A stretch of 6,277 nucleotides of DNA from Bacteriovoracaceae bacterium UBA2394. GTDB taxonomy: Bacteria > Bdellovibrionota > UBA2394. Under the pieces are notes generated by a model. That model worked only from the letters and a program-made list of their open reading frames with translations. It was not told the DNA's origin and did no database searches. Both the position numbers and the translations under genes were made by a program. The DNA lies in assembly GCA_002343335.1 (NCBI GenBank), contig DDSI01000268.1:943-7219 (forward strand). The letters are read 5' to 3'. Below are positions 1 through 5,170 of this stretch, one piece after another (positions within the stretch are counted from its first letter, which is position 1; the number at the start of each line of letters is the position of its first letter).

Positions 1-58
1 GAAATTCATTGTTAATAAAGGAGTTCAAGATTCTTCAAAGTGCTCGGTTGGCGGAACT
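1..58 (+). repeat. Truncated duplicate of tRNA-Leu 5' region
   Basis: Positions 1-58 are identical to 164-221 (offset 163). The copy carries the 41 bp directly upstream of the tRNA, including its probable -10 region, and the first 17 nt of the tRNA (42-58, GCTCGGTTGGCGGAACT). Identity stops abruptly at 58, inside the D-arm, so this copy cannot make a tRNA. It may extend left beyond the window. Seen directly; the cause (tandem duplication followed by replacement of the tRNA body) is inferred. Confidence 0.9.
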
Positions 59-83
59 CTGCGTCCGTCAGGAAGCAGCTACC
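59..83 (+). repeat. Hairpin element 1 fused to tRNA 5' fragment
   Basis: CTGCGTCC (59-66) and GGAAGCAG (71-78) pair around a GTCA loop, with one internal G-A mismatch, and are followed by CTACC (79-83). The hairpin starts immediately after GGAACT, the point where the tRNA duplicate ends. The layout AACT - CTG... stem - ...CAG - TACC resembles the elements at 429-457 and 2464-2499, but the GAGCA part of the acceptor strand is missing. It is therefore a probable divergent member of the same family. Confidence 0.5.
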
Positions 84-140
84 TGAAACTCAAGGGTCAA
101 GATGAGCGTTGTCGGAAGCGACTCGCGGAAAAGCGGAGCC

Positions 141-154
141 CGCGTCTGCCAGTT
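141..154 (-). repeat. Inverted 14-bp fragment of tRNA-Leu D-arm
   Basis: CGCGTCTGCCAGTT is the exact reverse complement of tRNA-Leu positions 218-231 (AACTGGCAGACGCG). A perfect 14-bp match this close is unlikely by chance, so part of the tRNA appears to have been copied or inverted into the spacer between the broken first copy and the intact gene. It overlaps a second inverted pair, AAACTCAA (86-93) with TTGAGTTT (153-160). The rest of 84-163 holds no recognisable gene. Confidence 0.75.
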
Positions 155-181
155 GAGTTTAAGGAAATTCATTGTTAATAA
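153..181 (+). promoter_or_regulatory. Candidate tRNA-Leu promoter
   Basis: TTGAGT (153-158) as -35 and TAATAA (176-181) as -10 are separated by 17 bp and would start transcription about 17 nt before the tRNA 5' end. The -35 matches consensus at four of six positions; the -10 is poor. The -10 part lies in the 58-bp duplicated block and the -35 lies outside it. This is a consensus match only. Confidence 0.3.
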
Positions 182-204
182 AGGAGTTCAAGATTCTTCA
201 AAGT

Positions 205-288
205 GCTCGGTTGGCGGAACTGGCAGACGCGCAAGACTCAGAATCTTGTGGGAGCAATCCCGTGGAGGTTCAAGTCCTCTACCGAGCA
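205..288 (+). tRNA. tRNA-Leu, anticodon CAG
   Basis: A complete 84-nt class II cloverleaf. Acceptor GCTCGGT (205-211) pairs with ACCGAGC (281-287), with discriminator A288. The anticodon stem is CAAGA/TCTTG (232-236, 244-248) with loop CTCAGAA, giving anticodon CAG at 239-241. The long variable arm is GGGA-GCAA-TCCC (250-261), as expected for tRNA-Leu. The T-arm is GGAGG/CCTCT with loop TTCAAGT (269-275). CCA is not encoded, so it must be added enzymatically. No clear hairpin terminator follows, only T-rich stretches. The gene decodes CUG. Its 3' half is the apparent target for the repeats found downstream. Confidence 0.97.
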
Positions 289-290
289 TT
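234..290. repeat. Direct repeat, left copy (attL-like)
   Basis: This 57-bp stretch runs from the anticodon stem through the tRNA 3' end plus TT, and recurs at 2280-2336 with a single mismatch (A273 versus C2319). The left copy belongs to the intact tRNA. An intact tRNA at one end and a 3'-only copy at the other is the usual footprint of integration into a tRNA gene. Confidence 0.85.
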
Positions 291-342
291 TTACTTCAGC
301 TTTTTCCTTAATGCTTCGTCTAACTCCGTTGCTCGGGCTTCA

Positions 343-359
343 TGGCCCATACAGGGCCA
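343..359. other. Perfect 6-bp hairpin
   Basis: TGGCCC (343-348) and GGGCCA (354-359) pair around ATACA. It lies twelve bases downstream of GCTCGG (331-336), the same six bases that open the tRNA acceptor stem, so it may be a decayed relative of the tRNA-hairpin elements. No T-run follows, so it is not a typical terminator. The interval 291-428 contains no gene I can support. Confidence 0.45.
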
Positions 360-414
360 ATTCAGCCACTGCGCTACTCGTTTTCCTCGTCTGAAGAAAA
401 AATCTTCGTAAAAT

Positions 415-472
415 TGCTCGCCACAACCCTGAACGCTATCGCGTTCAGTACCGAGCATTACTCGCGTTGTGG
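415..472 (+). repeat. Hairpin element 2: minimal tRNA-like fold
   Basis: A perfect 8-bp hairpin, CTGAACGC (429-436) - TATC - GCGTTCAG (441-448), is followed directly by TACCGAGCA (449-457), which is identical to the tRNA-Leu 3' strand (280-288). Upstream, TGCTCG (415-420) matches the tRNA 5' acceptor bases and pairs with CGAGCA (452-457). The element can thus close like a tRNA acceptor stem around one arm. An alternative 7-bp pairing, CCACAAC (421-427) with GTTGTGG (466-472), crosses that stem, so the two are exclusive or form a pseudoknot. Pairings are seen directly; any function is unknown. Confidence 0.7.
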
Positions 473-486
473 GTGAAAACAAGTGA

Positions 487-515
487 GCCCCTACGACCGA
501 AGAGGTCGTTGGGGC
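487..515. other. Strong 12-position hairpin
   Basis: GCCCCTACGACC (487-498) pairs with GGTCGTTGGGGC (504-515), with a single T-T mismatch and a GAAGA loop. No T-tract follows on the plus strand. Read on the minus strand it is followed by TCACTTGTTTTC, which is only weakly terminator-like. It sits between the tRNA and the 505-aa gene and could be a transcript-processing or boundary structure. Confidence 0.6.
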
Positions 516-529
516 GGGAAAATGGCTTC

Positions 530-552
530 AGAGATTTGAATGATCTCTTTTT
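530..552 (+). terminator. Candidate rho-independent terminator
   Basis: AGAGAT (530-535) and ATCTCT (543-548) pair around a 7-nt loop, followed by TTTT (549-552) and then G. It is correctly placed to stop transcription from the tRNA before the next gene. The stem is short and AT-rich, so termination would be weak. Confidence 0.35.
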
Positions 553-560
553 GAAGACTA

Positions 561-589
561 TTGCACACTTTCATAGCGAATAAATTATT
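561..589 (+). promoter_or_regulatory. Weak promoter candidate for the 505-aa gene
   Basis: TTGCAC (561-566) and ATTATT (584-589) are separated by 17 bp in an AT-rich stretch about 100 bp ahead of the start codon and just downstream of the candidate terminator. The match to sigma-70 boxes is modest, and no other clear promoter is visible in this gap. Confidence 0.2.
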
Positions 590-691
590 TTCAGTCTTGA
601 GAATCGAGTTGATCTCACAGCCCTCGAATTTTCGACACTCTTCCTGGCACCGTCCTTGCAGAGATATCAATAAGTGAATGGTGAGGTGGAT

Positions 692-2209
692 ATGACTTTC
701 AATTTCTCAGAAAGATTGCGTCACTTTGTTTTTTTCCTTCTTGCGCTTTCCTTCGATGCAGAAGTCTCGGCGTCATTTTATTGCAAACATGTCGTCTCTC
801 AGCTCGGGGGGGTCAGTCCGTACCGAGGCCCCATCATGCAAGATAAGGAGCGCATTGGGGATATTGCTTTGGAAAATGGAATACTCTATCTCGCCCTATC
901 CGTTCCTATTGCGCGATTACCGGACATTTTGGTGGCGCGCTATTTGCCGCACTTAGAATTGGACTACTCTGCTGGGAGCCCTGACAAGAGCTCCATTGGA
1001 TTCCACGCTGCCCGCCGGGTCATGATGCAAATGATTCATACTTCGCAAAGGGGCAAAAACGTGGACATAGATCTTGGCGGACTTGATTTGTTTGGAACAC
1101 GGATCGAGCATACGAAGGATGGGTCTTTGTATACGCTCATAGATATAAAGGGAGAGCCTGTTGATCCGGAAAGCCCTCTTTACACATTGAACCCTAACCC
1201 AGGAGCTCGTCCCAATCACAATGCGCTACTTCTCTTTTCTCCAAGAGTACTGTCTCTCTCCCACTGGGTATATGGACTGGAGAACGTGCTTCGTCATCAC
1301 GAGAGATCTTCGAAGGAGAGCGACGGCCTGTGCCATGATACCTACTGCTACTCTAGTTCTAGCTCGGATAAACTTCTCGCGGGTCTCTTTAGTTCACATA
1401 CGGGTGTTCCCTATGCCATTCGGATGGACGGCCCCATTCCCACTTACGAAATTATGGATATTCTCATTCAACCATCCAACGTCTCCTTTTTGAGTAATAC
1501 TTTGAAGCCCTATCCTGGCCTTCATCACTGGGCGACCAGAATTATCGTAACTGACACCTATCCGCGATTTGATCCTCGAAATTTCCGCTATCATCCTGGC
1601 CAGCTGAGAGCGGTCGCTGAGGATATAAATCCCAAGCTGAAGTCGAGTGAGGATAGTCGAGGGGTTGTAAGTAGTCCTGTCATGAGCTTCTCAGAGAAAT
1701 TTCCAGCGAAAGTGAGAGAAATAATCTCAACACAATATGAGATAGATACTATCCCTGCGGAAGCACCCAAAAGTGAGGACGCACCGGTCGCAAGCTTCGG
1801 TGGAGTAATTGTTCCAAGCATGTTCTTTTCTTCTTCTGTTTTGGACTTTCCTGACGCTGACACGGAAAGGTTTGGCGGCATCTCAGATAGGGAAGAAAAA
1901 TTTCTCGATCGAATTGGAGAGCTGCTGTCCCATGGTGGGACAGAAAAGGGAATTCACATTCCTAAATTGCTTGAAGGGGCAAAGATTGTTCGCTTGGGCA
2001 AAATAGAAATCAACGCTGTCAGAGAATGGAAATTTTTCTTAGCAGAGTATCGGGATAAACATGGATCAACGAAAATCGTTCTCATTCCTAGACCCGATCG
2101 ATTCAACACCACCGGCGACGCCAATCAGCCCTATCCCATTTGGGGAATCGGACAGATCACAGGGCGAGTCGGAGAAAGTATTGAATGGGAATGGACCTGG
2201 GATGGTTGA
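692..2209 (+). CDS. Predicted secreted protein, unknown function (505 aa)
   Basis: I do not recognise this protein. I chose ATG at 692 because GAGGTG (683-688) is a Shine-Dalgarno match just upstream; an in-frame GTG at 674 would add six residues and has no good ribosome site. The N-terminus has a basic segment (S7-R10), a hydrophobic stretch (residues 11-20, HFVFFLLALS) and a plausible signal-peptidase site near VSAS (25-28), so export is likely. The mature part has only three Cys (31, 214, 219), an SSSSS run near 221-225, a Ser/Pro/Glu-rich middle (about 315-370) that looks like a linker, and a Trp-rich end (EWEWTWDG). This suggests two regions, about 30-310 and 370-505. It is the only gene between the tRNA-Leu and its 3' duplicate, which suggests accessory cargo. 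A toxin, predation or surface role cannot be assigned from sequence alone. AAGCC/GGCTT (2216-2229) is a weak hairpin after the stop, without a T-tract. Confidence 0.85.
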   Translation: MTFNFSERLRHFVFFLLALSFDAEVSASFYCKHVVSQLGGVSPYRGPIMQDKERIGDIALENGILYLALSVPIARLPDILVARYLPHLELDYSAGSPDKSSIGFHAARRVMMQMIHTSQRGKNVDIDLGGLDLFGTRIEHTKDGSLYTLIDIKGEPVDPESPLYTLNPNPGARPNHNALLLFSPRVLSLSHWVYGLENVLRHHERSSKESDGLCHDTYCYSSSSSDKLLAGLFSSHTGVPYAIRMDGPIPTYEIMDILIQPSNVSFLSNTLKPYPGLHHWATRIIVTDTYPRFDPRNFRYHPGQLRAVAEDINPKLKSSEDSRGVVSSPVMSFSEKFPAKVREIISTQYEIDTIPAEAPKSEDAPVASFGGVIVPSMFFSSSVLDFPDADTERFGGISDREEKFLDRIGELLSHGGTEKGIHIPKLLEGAKIVRLGKIEINAVREWKFFLAEYRDKHGSTKIVLIPRPDRFNTTGDANQPYPIWGIGQITGRVGESIEWEWTWDG

Positions 2210-2279
2210 TAATACAAGCCATACGGCTTAATCGCAGTTCCAGACAGTTTCGTCTTGCATGGAGTCTCCTTTCCCATAG

Positions 2280-2336
2280 AGACTCAGAATCTTGTGGGAG
2301 CAATCCCGTGGAGGTTCACGTCCTCTACCGAGCATT
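2280..2336 (+). pseudogene. tRNA-Leu 3'-half fragment (attR-like)
   Basis: This copies tRNA-Leu from the anticodon stem to the 3' end (234-290) with one change, A to C at 2319, equivalent to T-loop position 58, which is nearly invariant in tRNAs. The 5' half, including acceptor 5' strand and D-arm, is absent upstream, so no tRNA can form. It is either the right end of an island inserted in the tRNA or the first unit of the array that starts here. Its final TACCGAGCA (2326-2334) is the first of four evenly spaced copies. Confidence 0.88.
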
Positions 2337-2384
2337 ACCCTGTCTCCGTAATCGAAGTTCATCTTCCGCCTGAGATCCGTAACT

Positions 2385-2412
2385 CAGAATGCTTTGCATT
2401 CTGTACCGAGCA
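2385..2412 (+). repeat. Hairpin element 3
   Basis: CAGAATGC (2385-2392) and GCATTCTG (2396-2403) form a perfect 8-bp stem with a TTT loop, followed without gap by TACCGAGCA. The bases ACTCAGAAT (2382-2390) equal the tRNA-Leu anticodon-loop region (236-244). The element reads like a tRNA 3' half whose variable and T arms were replaced by the mirror of its own anticodon strand. Confidence 0.75.
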
Positions 2413-2463
2413 AATTCCTTTCTTCGAAATCGACGCCATCCATCCGCATGGCAGTCCGTAACT

Positions 2464-2499
2464 CTGAGCGCTGCGCATGCTCGCGCCCAGTACCGAGCA
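2464..2499 (+). repeat. Hairpin element 4
   Basis: CTGAGCGC (2464-2471) and GCGCCCAG (2483-2490) pair at seven of eight positions (A-C mismatch at 2467/2487) around an 11-nt loop, followed by TACCGAGCA (2491-2499). The stem differs from elements 3 and 5 at several positions on both strands and pairing is kept, which suggests the structure matters more than the sequence. Confidence 0.7.
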
Positions 2500-2549
2500 C
2501 CAACCTCTCTTCGAAATCGACTTTAATCTTCCGCCCGAGATCCGTAACT

Positions 2550-2577
2550 CAGAATGCTTTGCATTCTGTACCGAGCA
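2550..2577 (+). repeat. Hairpin element 5
   Basis: CAGAATGC (2550-2557), TTT, GCATTCTG (2561-2568), then TACCGAGCA (2569-2577), identical to element 3. It ends nine bases from the stop codon of the convergent 142-aa gene. Read on the minus strand it is a hairpin just downstream of that operon, but lacks a T-tract, so at most it could act as a processing or 3'-end stabilising hairpin. Confidence 0.75.
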
Positions 2578-2586
2578 CCATTTGAG

Positions 2587-3015
2587 CTATTTTTCCCAAC
2601 TCAGATAGACGCCGTAGAGTGGTTTATAGCCCTCGTCGTTCGTCGCTTCGGGGCTGGGCAGACCACCCATTTTCATTTTCCAATCTGGAAGGATAGCAAA
2701 CGAACCGAGAGAGGGCTGAGATTCCCATTTAGCTCCGCGTATATCATTTTTTTCCAAAGCGGCGAGTTGAGTCGTCGCTTGCTGAAGAGCCTTCGCCAAA
2801 ACTTCCTTTTGCTTTTGCTCTACGATCTCAGCAAGTGAAAGTGGCGCTGAGATGACAGGAGTAGTCTTGGCAATCTTAGCATTGTGTTCGGCCACTTTTC
2901 TTTGGACAAATTCTCGAGCGGTACGTTCATCTTTTGACTCCGCACGTGCCGTGGCAGAATGGGCGGAAAAAACAGTGATCAACCCTAAGGCTTTCAACGC
3001 AGTAGTAAGCTTCAT
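2587..3015 (-). CDS. Small predicted secreted protein (142 aa), unknown
   Basis: No family recognised. The N-terminus is a good signal peptide (K2, then hydrophobic LGLITVF at 10-16, cleavage likely after ARA at residue 25). The mature protein has charged, probably helical segments at about 27-50 and 60-90 (Glu/Lys/Gln/Ala-rich, possibly coiled coil), then a Trp/Gly/Pro-containing tail ending YGVYLSWEK. It has no Cys. Its ATG overlaps the galE stop as ATGA (3012-3015), and only a weak purine site (AAGAG) precedes it, so translation is probably coupled to galE. It is the last gene of a glf-galE operon, so I infer an envelope or glycan-associated periplasmic role. The gene ends just before the tRNA-derived hairpin array. 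Confidence 0.8.
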   Translation of the reverse strand: MKLTTALKALGLITVFSAHSATARAESKDERTAREFVQRKVAEHNAKIAKTTPVISAPLSLAEIVEQKQKEVLAKALQQATTQLAALEKNDIRGAKWESQPSLGSFAILPDWKMKMGGLPSPEATNDEGYKPLYGVYLSWEK

Positions 3016-4001
3016 GCTCTTGTTTTAAAGCAAGAACGATGCCACTGAAGGGCGTGCTCGATCATGGTCGATAAATCGGGGTACTTCCTCACCCAGCCCA
3101 GGATTCTCGTGGCCTTGGTGGATTGCGCGATGAGGACTGGCGGATCCCCGGCGCGGCGTTCGTTCATTTCAATGGCGATCTTTTGTCCTACCACTTTCTC
3201 CGTGGCGCGAATTACTTCCAAAACGCTGAATCCCCTTTCACTTCCTAAATTGAAAGCTTCAAATTTTCGAGAAATCTGATGCTCCAGCGCGAGTAAATGC
3301 GCATCGACCAGATCCATGACATGCACGTAGTCCCGAACGCATGTTCCATCGGGTGTGGGGTAGTTATTTCCAAAAACTTTTACTGGCTCACCTCTCCTTG
3401 CGGCTTCCAAGATCTTAGGGATGAGATGCGTCTCCGGCTCATGGGCTTCGCCAAGCGTTCCGTCGGGGTGCGCTCCTGCGACGTTGAAGTAACGAAATGC
3501 CGTCCCAGCGAATTGATGGTTTTGACAATAGTGTTGAAGAAGCTGTTCGGTTTTTGCCTTAGATTCGCCGTAAGGATTCACCGGTGCCAAGGGCTCACCC
3601 TCCTCAATCGGTATACTTTCGGGCGTGCCGTAAACTGCTGCCGTGGATGAAAAGACGATTTTTGAAATGCTATTTTCTTTCATGCACTCCAATAGATTGC
3701 GAGATCCTTCAAAATTATTTCGCAAATAAAGTTCGGGCTGATTCACACTTTCATTCACTTGAATGAGCGCTGCAAAGTGGATCACGGCCTCTGGCTGAAA
3801 AGACTTGAGAGATTTCGAGAGTAAAGCGCGGTCGAGAAGATCGCATTTGGAAAATGCCGCGCGTTTATCCACGGCCCACTGGTGACCTCTGGATAAATTA
3901 TCGATCACCTGGACTTCATAACCACGATCAAGCAACGCTCGCGTCGCCAATGAGCCGATATATCCTGCACCGCCGGTGACCGTGATTTTCTTCAACTTCA
4001 T
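3012..4001 (-). CDS. galE: UDP-glucose 4-epimerase
   Basis: Cytoplasmic NAD-dependent enzyme interconverting UDP-glucose and UDP-galactose; an extended short-chain dehydrogenase. The 329-aa length is usual for the family. Seen: NAD-binding TGGAGYIGS at residues 9-17, IDNLSRG at 33-39, the SSTAAVYG active-site strand at 118-125, catalytic YxxxK as Y144-GES-K148, FRYFNVAGA at 169-177 (substrate site), TCVRDYVHVMDLVDAH at 220-235 and RRAGDP at 282-287. The start overlaps the glf stop (ATGA, 3998-4001), with GTGGAG about 7-12 nt upstream as ribosome site, so the two are coupled. With Glf next door its product UDP-Gal is likely destined for UDP-galactofuranose. A GalE homologue acting on UDP-GlcNAc/GalNAc cannot be excluded from sequence alone. 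Confidence 0.95.
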   Translation of the reverse strand: MKLKKITVTGGAGYIGSLATRALLDRGYEVQVIDNLSRGHQWAVDKRAAFSKCDLLDRALLSKSLKSFQPEAVIHFAALIQVNESVNQPELYLRNNFEGSRNLLECMKENSISKIVFSSTAAVYGTPESIPIEEGEPLAPVNPYGESKAKTEQLLQHYCQNHQFAGTAFRYFNVAGAHPDGTLGEAHEPETHLIPKILEAARRGEPVKVFGNNYPTPDGTCVRDYVHVMDLVDAHLLALEHQISRKFEAFNLGSERGFSVLEVIRATEKVVGQKIAIEMNERRAGDPPVLIAQSTKATRILGWVRKYPDLSTMIEHALQWHRSCFKTRA

Positions 4002-5170
4002 CCACCAGCTCCACTTGAGAGCGGAGAAGTGCTGAAGTGAGGCCAGCGCTTTATGTCCGATTCATTTAAACAAACTTCGGCCAGTTTTAGCGCTTCTTCA
4101 ATCACGACGTGCATATCCAAGTAGCGATAGGTTCCAAGTCGTCCTAAAAAAGTAACAGCGGTTTCTTGTTCTGCAAGCTTAATGTAGTCCTGGAGTAGTT
4201 TTTTATCGGGATCGAGACGCATGGGATAAAAGGGCGTGTCTCCGTCCTCCGTTTGTTTACTAAACTCTTTGAAATAGACTGTGCGATCAAATTTTTCCCA
4301 AGGAGCGAAGTGTTTGTGCTCGGCTATCCGAGTGTATGGAATTCTTTCCTCACAATAGTTCACTACCGAATGATTCTGAAAATCACCGTCGGCGCGATGC
4401 TCCTCGAAGGTCACTGTTCGATAATTCAATTTCCCCAGTTGATAAGAAAAGTAACCGTCTAGGGGTCCACTGTAGAAGACATGTTCAAAATTCTTTACGC
4501 CTTCGCGAGTGAGGCGCTCCCCCAGTCGAACTTCAATTTTGGGATGATCCAAAATATTTTCTACGATCGCGGTGTAGCCCGCTCTTGGAATTCCCTGAAA
4601 GGGGTCATTGAAATAGGAGAGATCTTCCGTGAAACGAATGGGAAGGCGCTTCAAAATGGAAGCCGACAATTGACGAGGTTCCACTCCCCACTGCTTCTTT
4701 GTGTAACCATAGAAAAAATTATCATACAACTCCCGTCCCAGCATTTTAAGCGCCTGTTCTTCGAAATTTTTTGGCTCGCCTATAGAGCGATCGCCAAGCG
4801 ACTGAACAAATTTCTCCGCTTCGGAGGGCGACATCTTTTTACCAAAGAACTCATTGAGCGTTCTCAGGTTGATGGGGAGGTGAAATATTCCCTTTGCCGT
4901 GGATGCTTTAACTTGATGAGAAAAATTTTCGAACCTGCCCCAGCGCTGAACGTAATTCCAAACATGTTCATTACTTGTGTGGAAAATGTGAGGCCCATAA
5001 TGGTGAACCATGATCCCTGTTTCAGAATCGCGTGAGGTGTGACAATTTCCCGCAACGTGCGTGCGCTCGTCATAAATCACGGCTTTGAACGGCCCTCGAG
5101 TGACCAATTCGCGGGCGACAACCGCACAGGAGAATCCAGCTCCTGCGAATCCGATTACGCGTTCTATCAT
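3998..5170 (-). CDS. glf: UDP-galactopyranose mutase
   Basis: Flavoenzyme of the cytoplasm converting UDP-galactopyranose to UDP-galactofuranose, the donor for Galf in surface polysaccharide. The 390 aa align along their length with the Klebsiella-type enzyme as I recall it: FAD-binding GAGFSC (10-15), HVAGN (38-42), HYGPHIFHT (57-65), GYTKKQWG (155-162), LKRLPIRF (173-180), FYSGPLD (232-238), NYCEERIPYTRIAEHKHF (271-288) with the substrate-phosphate Arg, YPM (315-317), and FLGRLGTYRYLDMH (341-354). One oddity is that the third Gly of the nucleotide-binding GxGxxG is Cys15. The start places the GAG motif at the family's usual distance. No Shine-Dalgarno is visible. First gene of the glf-galE-142 aa operon. 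Confidence 0.96.
   Translation of the reverse strand: MIERVIGFAGAGFSCAVVARELVTRGPFKAVIYDERTHVAGNCHTSRDSETGIMVHHYGPHIFHTSNEHVWNYVQRWGRFENFSHQVKASTAKGIFHLPINLRTLNEFFGKKMSPSEAEKFVQSLGDRSIGEPKNFEEQALKMLGRELYDNFFYGYTKKQWGVEPRQLSASILKRLPIRFTEDLSYFNDPFQGIPRAGYTAIVENILDHPKIEVRLGERLTREGVKNFEHVFYSGPLDGYFSYQLGKLNYRTVTFEEHRADGDFQNHSVVNYCEERIPYTRIAEHKHFAPWEKFDRTVYFKEFSKQTEDGDTPFYPMRLDPDKKLLQDYIKLAEQETAVTFLGRLGTYRYLDMHVVIEEALKLAEVCLNESDIKRWPHFSTSPLSSGAGG

What the first reader, a model, noticed from the sequence alone, without database searches (positions are those of the whole stretch)
415..2577. Family of tRNA-Leu-derived hairpin elements with compensatory stem changes
At 429-457, 2385-2412, 2464-2499 and 2550-2577 an 8-bp hairpin abuts TACCGAGCA, the exact acceptor 3' strand plus discriminator of the local tRNA-Leu. 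Stems are CTGAACGC/GCGTTCAG, CAGAATGC/GCATTCTG (twice) and CTGAGCGC/GCGCCCAG: different bases but pairing kept. A fifth hairpin (59-78) joins to the tRNA 5' end instead. Covarying stems plus an invariant tRNA end suggest selection on a structured RNA or folded single-stranded DNA. I know of no described repeat family of this kind. Possible roles: RNase P or CCA-enzyme substrates or decoys, transcript ends, or recombination sites.
Basis: partly seen in the sequence, partly recalled or inferred. Interest (0 to 1): 0.8.

Follow-up and report, generated by a model that had tools for sequence, protein, structure and literature searches.

The report
Hairpin repeats that clasp tRNA genes
Many tRNA genes in one family of uncultured bacteria carry tiny DNA repeats at one or both ends, the best-preserved of which hold a hairpin plus a direct and a mirror-image copy of that tRNA's own end; they are likely miniature mobile elements that spare the tRNA gene they land on.

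Summary
The hairpins are real, but they are not a tRNA-Leu family: they are divergent members of a class of small repeats at the ends of many tRNA genes. In well-preserved units (about 65-110 nt) the order, from outside inwards, is: a copy of the terminal 14-20 bp of the neighbouring tRNA gene; a core hairpin with an A-rich linker; a second short stem; an inverted copy of tRNA bases ~10-30; a spacer; the intact tRNA. The core hairpin covaries (5 of 7 pairs; 0 of 500 shuffles). Units lie upstream on the tRNA strand or downstream on the opposite strand, which points to DNA rather than RNA. A covariance model found them in 5 of 290 genomes of the phylum, namely all 5 held of the window's family, and in one named 'Deltaproteobacteria' MAG. 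The upstream inverted copy occurs at 19 of 112 family tRNAs against 0 of 130 control tRNAs. Preferred reading: a miniature element that inserts at tRNA gene ends and duplicates the end, leaving the tRNA whole. Insertion itself is inferred and no enzyme is identified. Ten searches of an open-access library found no earlier description.

The parts
1..40 (+). Leader identical to 164-203, before the outer copy of the tRNA 5' end; an assembly gap (NN) lies directly upstream of the window
   Evidence: direct repeat D4; N at contig 941-942
41..58 (+). Outer copy of the tRNA 5' end (first 18 nt of the ARAGORN gene)
59..140 (+). Not matched by model R1; 41-155 folds as DNA only slightly better than shuffles (z -1.4)
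141..154 (-). Inverted copy of tRNA bases 218-231
   Evidence: inverted repeat I6, 14 of 14
204..289 (+). Intact tRNA-Leu(CAG)
415..420 (-). Short inverted copy (TGCTCG) of the tRNA 3' end, closing the downstream unit; unit 415-457 folds as DNA with z -6.6
   Evidence: sequence; fold
429..448 (-). Core-type hairpin, 8/8 pairs
449..457 (+). Copy of the tRNA 3' end (TACCGAGCA)
2280..2336 (+). Displaced tRNA 3' part, 98% identical to 234-290
   Evidence: D5
2385..2412 (-). Downstream unit: hairpin 2385-2403 (8/8) plus tRNA-end copy 2404-2412; no inverted copy noticed
   Evidence: z -4.9
2464..2499 (-). Downstream unit: hairpin 2464-2490 (7/8) plus tRNA-end copy 2491-2499, followed by CCA
   Evidence: z -0.7
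2550..2577 (-). Downstream unit: hairpin 2550-2568 (8/8, same stem as 2385) plus tRNA-end copy 2569-2577, followed by CCA

Best explanation
The hairpins belong to small DNA repeats that flank many tRNA genes of this family, and they are likely a miniature, non-autonomous mobile element that inserts exactly at the end of a tRNA gene and duplicates that end so the gene stays whole. Shown: the well-preserved unit is a direct copy of the gene's terminal 14-20 bp, a covarying core hairpin with an A-rich linker, a second stem and an inverted copy of the tRNA bases that follow; the outer 5' copy starts at tRNA base 1; units occur at both ends of tRNA genes, on opposite strands; some stand in tandem; similar bodies sit beside different tRNAs. 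Inferred: insertion acts on DNA, probably on a folded single strand, because the core keeps its orientation relative to the gene end and not to the transcript; the direct copy is the product of insertion; the inverted copy is kept matched to the local tRNA by strand switching during replication. The enzyme is not identified; a hairpin-recognising single-strand transposase acting in trans would fit. The window's own units are divergent members, tied to the class by arrangement only.
For: Copies and inverted copies of the own tRNA end in 35 of 112 family tRNAs against 4 of 130 control tRNAs; upstream inverted copy 19 of 112 against 0 of 130. Core hairpin: 5 of 7 pairs change on both sides, 0 of 500 shuffles reach the covariation score. 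Model R1: 29 matches in 5 of 290 phylum genomes, all 5 of the family; 26 of 29 loci hold a tRNA, the other 3 matches lie within 90 nt of a contig end. Strand rule: 31 upstream/same, 5 downstream/opposite, 5 otherwise, 4 without tRNA, of 45; full anatomy readable downstream at tRNA-Leu (three tandem units), -Pro and -Trp. A second body type matches 12 times in G002 (77-99%, some partial), 11 loci with a tRNA, nine different tRNA genes. Tandem arrays: three units before tRNA-Asp and tRNA-Arg. Outer 5' copies: identity 0.97 over bases 1-16, 0.46 just before base 1.
Against: No empty site, excision product or enzyme was seen; the family has only five held genomes, each of a different genus. None of 12 fetched Y1-transposase loci (of 23 matches) carries a unit. 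The five downstream model matches are individually weak (E 8e-4 to 0.16), and two downstream units fold no better than shuffles. Model R1 does not match the window's units. Other families of the phylum show the arrangement with unrelated bodies, which one mobile family would not explain. The inverted copy fits another tRNA of the genome better in 5 of 31 cases and equally in 9.
Confidence: 0.5

Rival explanations
1. Purely mutational origin: replication stalls at tRNA genes, strand switching makes direct and inverted copies, tandem duplication multiplies them, and gene conversion between tRNA genes spreads bodies. No dedicated enzyme is needed.
For: Direct and inverted copies match the local tRNA; tandem units; different bodies with one arrangement in different families. 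That template switching creates and maintains hairpins is reported (PMC8794818, search listing only).
Against: A conserved, covarying core with an A-rich linker recurs beside unrelated tRNAs, and control tRNAs of other genomes rarely show anything like it (4 of 130).
Confidence: 0.22
2. Cis-acting RNA: the leader or trailer switches between pairing with itself (copy with inverted copy) and pairing with the tRNA, and so controls tRNA folding.
For: The inverted copy is complementary to the tRNA, and folding of leader plus tRNA start often prefers that pairing; covariation; one unit lies only 6 nt before its tRNA by model coordinates (L282).
Against: Downstream units carry the conserved core on the strand opposite to the tRNA, so one RNA function cannot serve both positions. 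Units are missing from most family tRNAs examined. The outer copy is degenerate or absent in several.
Confidence: 0.13
3. Attachment-site scars of integrase-driven islands that enter tRNA genes and restore the end.
For: Direct repeats of tRNA 3' ends are typical of such islands (recalled); a displaced tRNA 3' part lies at 2280-2336 beyond a 511-aa ORF.
Against: Units are too short for genes; copies occur at 5' ends as well; inverted copies and a core hairpin are not part of such scars; one body type meets many different tRNA ends; no integrase domain was found in the five window proteins scanned.
Confidence: 0.1
4. Assembly artefact of short-read draft genomes.
For: NN beside the window's upstream repeat; three model matches end contigs.
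Against: The same anatomy at different tRNAs in several separately assembled genomes, including a named record, with covariation.
Confidence: 0.03

Closest known systems
REP elements and REPtrons (GTAG- and CGTC-tagged palindromes; TnpA-REP/RAYT)
   Same: Short, dispersed hairpins, strand-specific, thought to be mobilised as single-stranded DNA (PMC8266576 and PMC3733652, passages). Many core hairpins here follow YGTC or YGTT, recalling the CGTC/TGTC tag.
   Different: No GTAG tag next to the core hairpin, 3-nt loops instead of 4-5 for CGTC repeats, seen only beside tRNA genes, carry host-matched direct and inverted copies, and no unit beside 12 fetched Y1 transposase genes.
IS200/IS605 non-autonomous elements
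   Same: Hairpin ends, single-strand DNA, cleavage site chosen by pairing with a guide in the element (PMC8266576, passage).
   Different: Guides there are four bases; here the inverted copy is 11-20 nt and matches a gene end. No terminal ends of such an element were identified.
Genomic islands integrated in tRNA genes
   Same: Use tRNA genes and leave them whole with a duplicated end.
   Different: Units of about 65-170 nt without genes, at both ends, on both strands, with inverted copies and a core hairpin.
Integron attC sites
   Same: Imperfect inverted repeat with an extrahelical part, recognised by structure (recalled).
   Different: No attC model or motif search was run; here the stems match the neighbouring tRNA and no gene cassettes were seen.
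Quasipalindrome correction by template switching
   Same: Explains how inverted copies stay perfect (PMC8794818, PMC8604942, search listing only).
   Different: Does not supply the conserved core or its dispersal.

Membership tests
REP (GTAG class) | Unpaired GTAG directly 5' of the hairpin | tested here: not met
   Alignment A2: the base of the core hairpin is preceded by the tRNA-end copy and YGT-like bases; GTAG occurs only as part of tRNA bases in some copies
REP (CGTC class) | CGTC/TGTC tag, 8-9 bp stem, loop 4-5, CCA-like tail | tested here: not met
   Tag partly similar, but stem 6-7 bp with a 3-nt loop in A2; class features from passages of PMC3733652
REPtron | Repeats flank a RAYT/Y1 gene | tested here: not met
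   R1 against 12 of 23 Y1 matches' loci: no match better than E 1.6; the other 11 were not fetched
tRNA-integrated island | Direct repeat of the tRNA 3' end | tested here: met
   for the downstream copies
tRNA-integrated island | Integrase gene between the repeats | tested here: not met
   Units too short for a gene; five window proteins scanned with Pfam, none an integrase
MITE | Terminal inverted repeats of the element's own sequence with a target duplication | tested here: inconclusive
   A duplication-like direct copy is present; the inverted part is tRNA-derived, not element-specific
Single-strand mobile element | Excision and insertion of the unit | not testable with these tools
   No strain pairs or reads are held
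Cis-acting RNA of tRNA transcripts | Same strand relative to the transcript wherever it occurs | tested here: not met
   5 downstream matches on the opposite strand
Rfam families | Match to a described RNA family | tested here: not met
   Window: only tRNA above gathering score. Twelve loci with units: tRNA, rRNA and three weak sub-threshold plastid matches on tRNA reverse strands
Integron attC | Conserved attC core sites | not tested
   No attC search was run

The most novel reading that the evidence does not exclude
A new class of self-retargeting DNA element: a hairpin core of about 30 nt that settles at the exact end of almost any tRNA gene, on either strand, and takes from that gene both a direct and an inverted copy of its end, so that the tRNA survives and the element always matches its current host gene.
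Probability: 0.4. Interest if true: 0.85.

Novelty: new variant of a known kind. Interest (0 to 1): 0.7.

Why it matters
tRNA genes are common targets of mobile DNA, usually at the 3' end and through integrases. Repeats that use both ends, match each tRNA individually and leave the gene intact would be a different answer to the problem of a safe insertion site. Their host-matched inverted copies would also let one test in nature how short inverted repeats arise and stay perfect.

Tried and rejected
Rejected: a Leu-only family; an RNA decoy role (strand rule); a described Rfam RNA; RAYT-linked REPs as far as 12 of 23 Y1 loci show; viral origin, as three exact core-pattern hits in viral contigs have no tRNA and no such unit.

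A promoter/terminator scan of window 1-700 found nothing. The 511-aa ORF has one remote relative. Paper searches: searches returned nothing, 52 one unrelated paper, 53, 62, 77, 78 only general literature; the library is open-access PMC. The phylum's name was not established; only records' own label 'Deltaproteobacteria' was seen.

Limits and dropped rows: 6 of the 51 matches were left out as duplicates from overlapping loci. One search counts tRNAs in fetched loci (29, 33, 31, 10, 9 and 36 per genome), not whole genomes; its 130 control tRNAs come from loci pulled in by the pattern, nearly all of other phyla by title, a few labelled Deltaproteobacteria. One search includes only flanks with an own-tRNA match of at least 10 nt, which favours the own tRNA. 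One search picks copies by a 12-nt match, so high identity inside the copy is partly by selection. The core pattern was drawn from units already known; it gave 22 matches (8 exact) against 9 for the reversed control pattern.
Full report
WHAT IS IN THE WINDOW. The window is part of contig C184 of a 2.65-Mb draft genome in 283 contigs. It holds one tRNA-Leu(CAG) at 204-289. TACCGAGCA, the end of the tRNA at 280-288, recurs at 449, 2326, 2404, 2491 and 2569. The copy at 2326 ends a displaced tRNA 3' part (2280-2336, 98% identical to 234-290). The other four directly follow a hairpin with 8, 8, 7 and 8 of 8 pairs; only 4 of 6237 positions of the window end an 8/8 hairpin. Of nine GTACCGAGCA matches in the genome, four are these; the other five have 2-4 of 8 pairs. 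Upstream of the tRNA, 1-58 repeats 164-221 exactly, and 141-154 is the perfect reverse complement of 218-231. Two N stand directly before the window, and 23 nt of the upstream body recur beyond them, so a tandem unit may be collapsed there.

THE SAME ARRANGEMENT AT OTHER tRNA GENES. I fetched tRNA loci of the own genome and of relatives and searched each tRNA's flanks for direct and inverted copies of its own ends. They occur at many different tRNAs. Upstream, a copy of the first 14-20 nt lies further out and an inverted copy of bases ~10-30 nearer in; downstream, an inverted copy lies nearer in and a copy of the 3' end further out. At thresholds of 12 nt (direct) and 11 nt (inverted), other tRNAs masked, 35 of 112 tRNAs of the five family genomes show at least one sign (G000 6/29, G001 5/33, G002 21/31, G003 2/10, G004 1/9). 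In G007, of another family, it is 9 of 36; in Leu loci of other phylum genomes 4 of 22. Of 130 control tRNAs in other named genomes, 4 do. Singly, family against control: upstream inverted copy 19/112 and 0/130; upstream direct copy 12/112 and 0/130; downstream direct copy 14/112 and 3/130; downstream inverted copy 4/112 and 1/130.

ANATOMY OF THE BEST-PRESERVED UNIT. Sixteen upstream units from four genomes (ten of them from G002) and one named MAG align over 77 columns. Order: tRNA-end copy ending in the D-loop; core hairpin of 6-7 bp with a 3-nt loop, of the form C(GNA)G in 12 of 16 (that such loops are very stable in DNA is recalled); a linker near AAATAAACA; a short stem whose 5' strand repeats tRNA bases ~22-27; a small loop; the reverse complement of tRNA bases ~28 to ~10, shorter in several. 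In the core hairpin 5 of 7 pairs change on both sides. For the whole structure 94.2% of cells pair against 82.7% in shuffles, and the covariation score is 0.353 against 0.125, reached by 0 of 500 shuffles; the number of pairs changed on both sides alone is reached by 51 of 500. The second stem hardly varies. Three upstream units fold as single-stranded DNA far better than shuffles (z -4.5 to -5.9); two downstream units do not (z -1.3 and -0.8).

WHERE IT OCCURS. Model R1 gave 29 matches in 5 of 290 genomes of the phylum, which are the five held genomes of the window's family (one search gives 30 matches in 5 of 5). Of the 29 loci, 26 contain a tRNA; the other three matches lie within 90 nt of a contig end. 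Because R1 contains tRNA-like flanks, I also searched the core alone as a pattern: in six genomes all 8 exact matches, all in G002, lie beside tRNAs, 3 upstream on the same strand and 5 downstream on the opposite strand. Of 14 one-mismatch matches one is a further unit at tRNA-Leu(GAG), one a known unit at a contig end, and 12 have no tRNA in their locus; the reversed control pattern gave 9. The named record JADGCS010000017.1 ('Deltaproteobacteria bacterium isolate nXXbin1') has a unit at tRNA-Met. Its genome has six matches, at tRNA-Arg (with part of a second unit at the contig start), -Met, -Val and three tandem units before -Asp.

BOTH ENDS, OPPOSITE STRANDS. Of 45 non-duplicate R1 matches, 31 lie upstream on the tRNA's strand and 5 downstream on the opposite strand; 4 lie in loci without a tRNA; 5 are otherwise: one between two tRNA-Lys copies, one the reverse reading of a palindromic unit, three with E of 0.2 or worse. 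The five downstream matches are weak one by one (E 8e-4 to 0.16), but their sequences show the whole order on the opposite strand: three tandem units at tRNA-Leu, one at tRNA-Pro, one at tRNA-Trp, with AATAAACA-like linkers and inverted copies of T-arm and variable-loop bases. The unit therefore goes with the end of the gene as DNA, not with the D-arm or the transcript. A second downstream body type matches 12 times in G002 (77-99% identity, some partial), beside tRNAs for Cys, Pro, two Ala, Val, Thr, Leu, Phe and Gln; one of the 12 loci has no tRNA found.

BOUNDARIES AND HOST MATCHING. In 17 outer 5' copies identity is 0.97 over bases 1-16, 0.46 over the 12 bases before base 1 and 0.28 over bases 19-30. 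In 21 outer 3' copies identity often stops at or near the discriminator but runs on in several, fully in L016 and nearly so in L034. In some loci only one of the two ends is followed by CCA, in either direction (window). The inverted copy fits its own tRNA best in 17 of 31 cases, equally well in 9 and worse than another tRNA in 5; D-arms are much alike.

HOW IT MOST LIKELY WORKS. Shown: place, order, strand rule, covariation, tandem arrays, similar bodies at different tRNAs. Inferred: a miniature element inserts at the tRNA gene end, probably as a folded single strand, and duplicates the terminal bases, so that a working tRNA remains. The inverted copy is then kept equal to the local tRNA by strand switching; that template switching creates and maintains hairpins is reported (PMC8794818, search listing only). 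No enzyme is assigned. Y1 transposase domains occur in all seven genomes searched, but none of 12 fetched loci of 23 matches carries a unit.

THE WINDOW IN THIS LIGHT. Its hairpins at 429, 2385, 2464 and 2550 are read as core-type hairpins of downstream units. The unit 415-457 also has a short closing inverted copy and folds with z -6.6; the upstream stretch 41-155 reaches only z -1.4. R1 does not match the window, so these are divergent members tied to the class by arrangement. The same hairpin type with the tag TCCGTAACT stands beside tRNA-Pro of this genome with the tRNA-Pro 3' end instead (L048). Other families of the phylum show the arrangement with unrelated bodies (G007, G035, G014).

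NOVELTY. Ten paper searches of an open-access library found no description. REP families are the nearest kind I compared, from passages of two papers; defining features are not met.

Noticed in passing
window 674-2209: A 511-aa ORF without Pfam match between the tRNA and the displaced tRNA 3' part; apart from itself one relative at 32% identity, named hypothetical protein of a Deltaproteobacteria bacterium. It may mark a small island.
   Followed up: partly
L009 941-942, directly before the window: Two N in the contig next to the 58-bp repeat; an upstream tandem unit may be collapsed.
   Followed up: partly
L124, L125 (G007) and L015 (G035), downstream of tRNA-Arg, -Val, -Leu: Larger downstream bodies with shared motifs (TGCCGGAA, GACCGG) and several stems whose sequences change together by eye, between an inverted and a direct copy of the tRNA end.
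   Followed up: no
L052, downstream of tRNA-Cys (G000): A long palindrome continues the tRNA 3' end into its own inverted copy.
   Followed up: no
L272 (G002:C49): Two tRNA-Lys-like genes in tandem with a unit between them; the second looks altered.
   Followed up: no
G000-G004, G007, G290: Y1 (IS200-like) transposase domains in all seven genomes searched, 23 matches.
   Followed up: partly
window 3012-5170: Minus-strand genes for an NAD-dependent epimerase family protein and UDP-galactopyranose mutase; ordinary.
   Followed up: no
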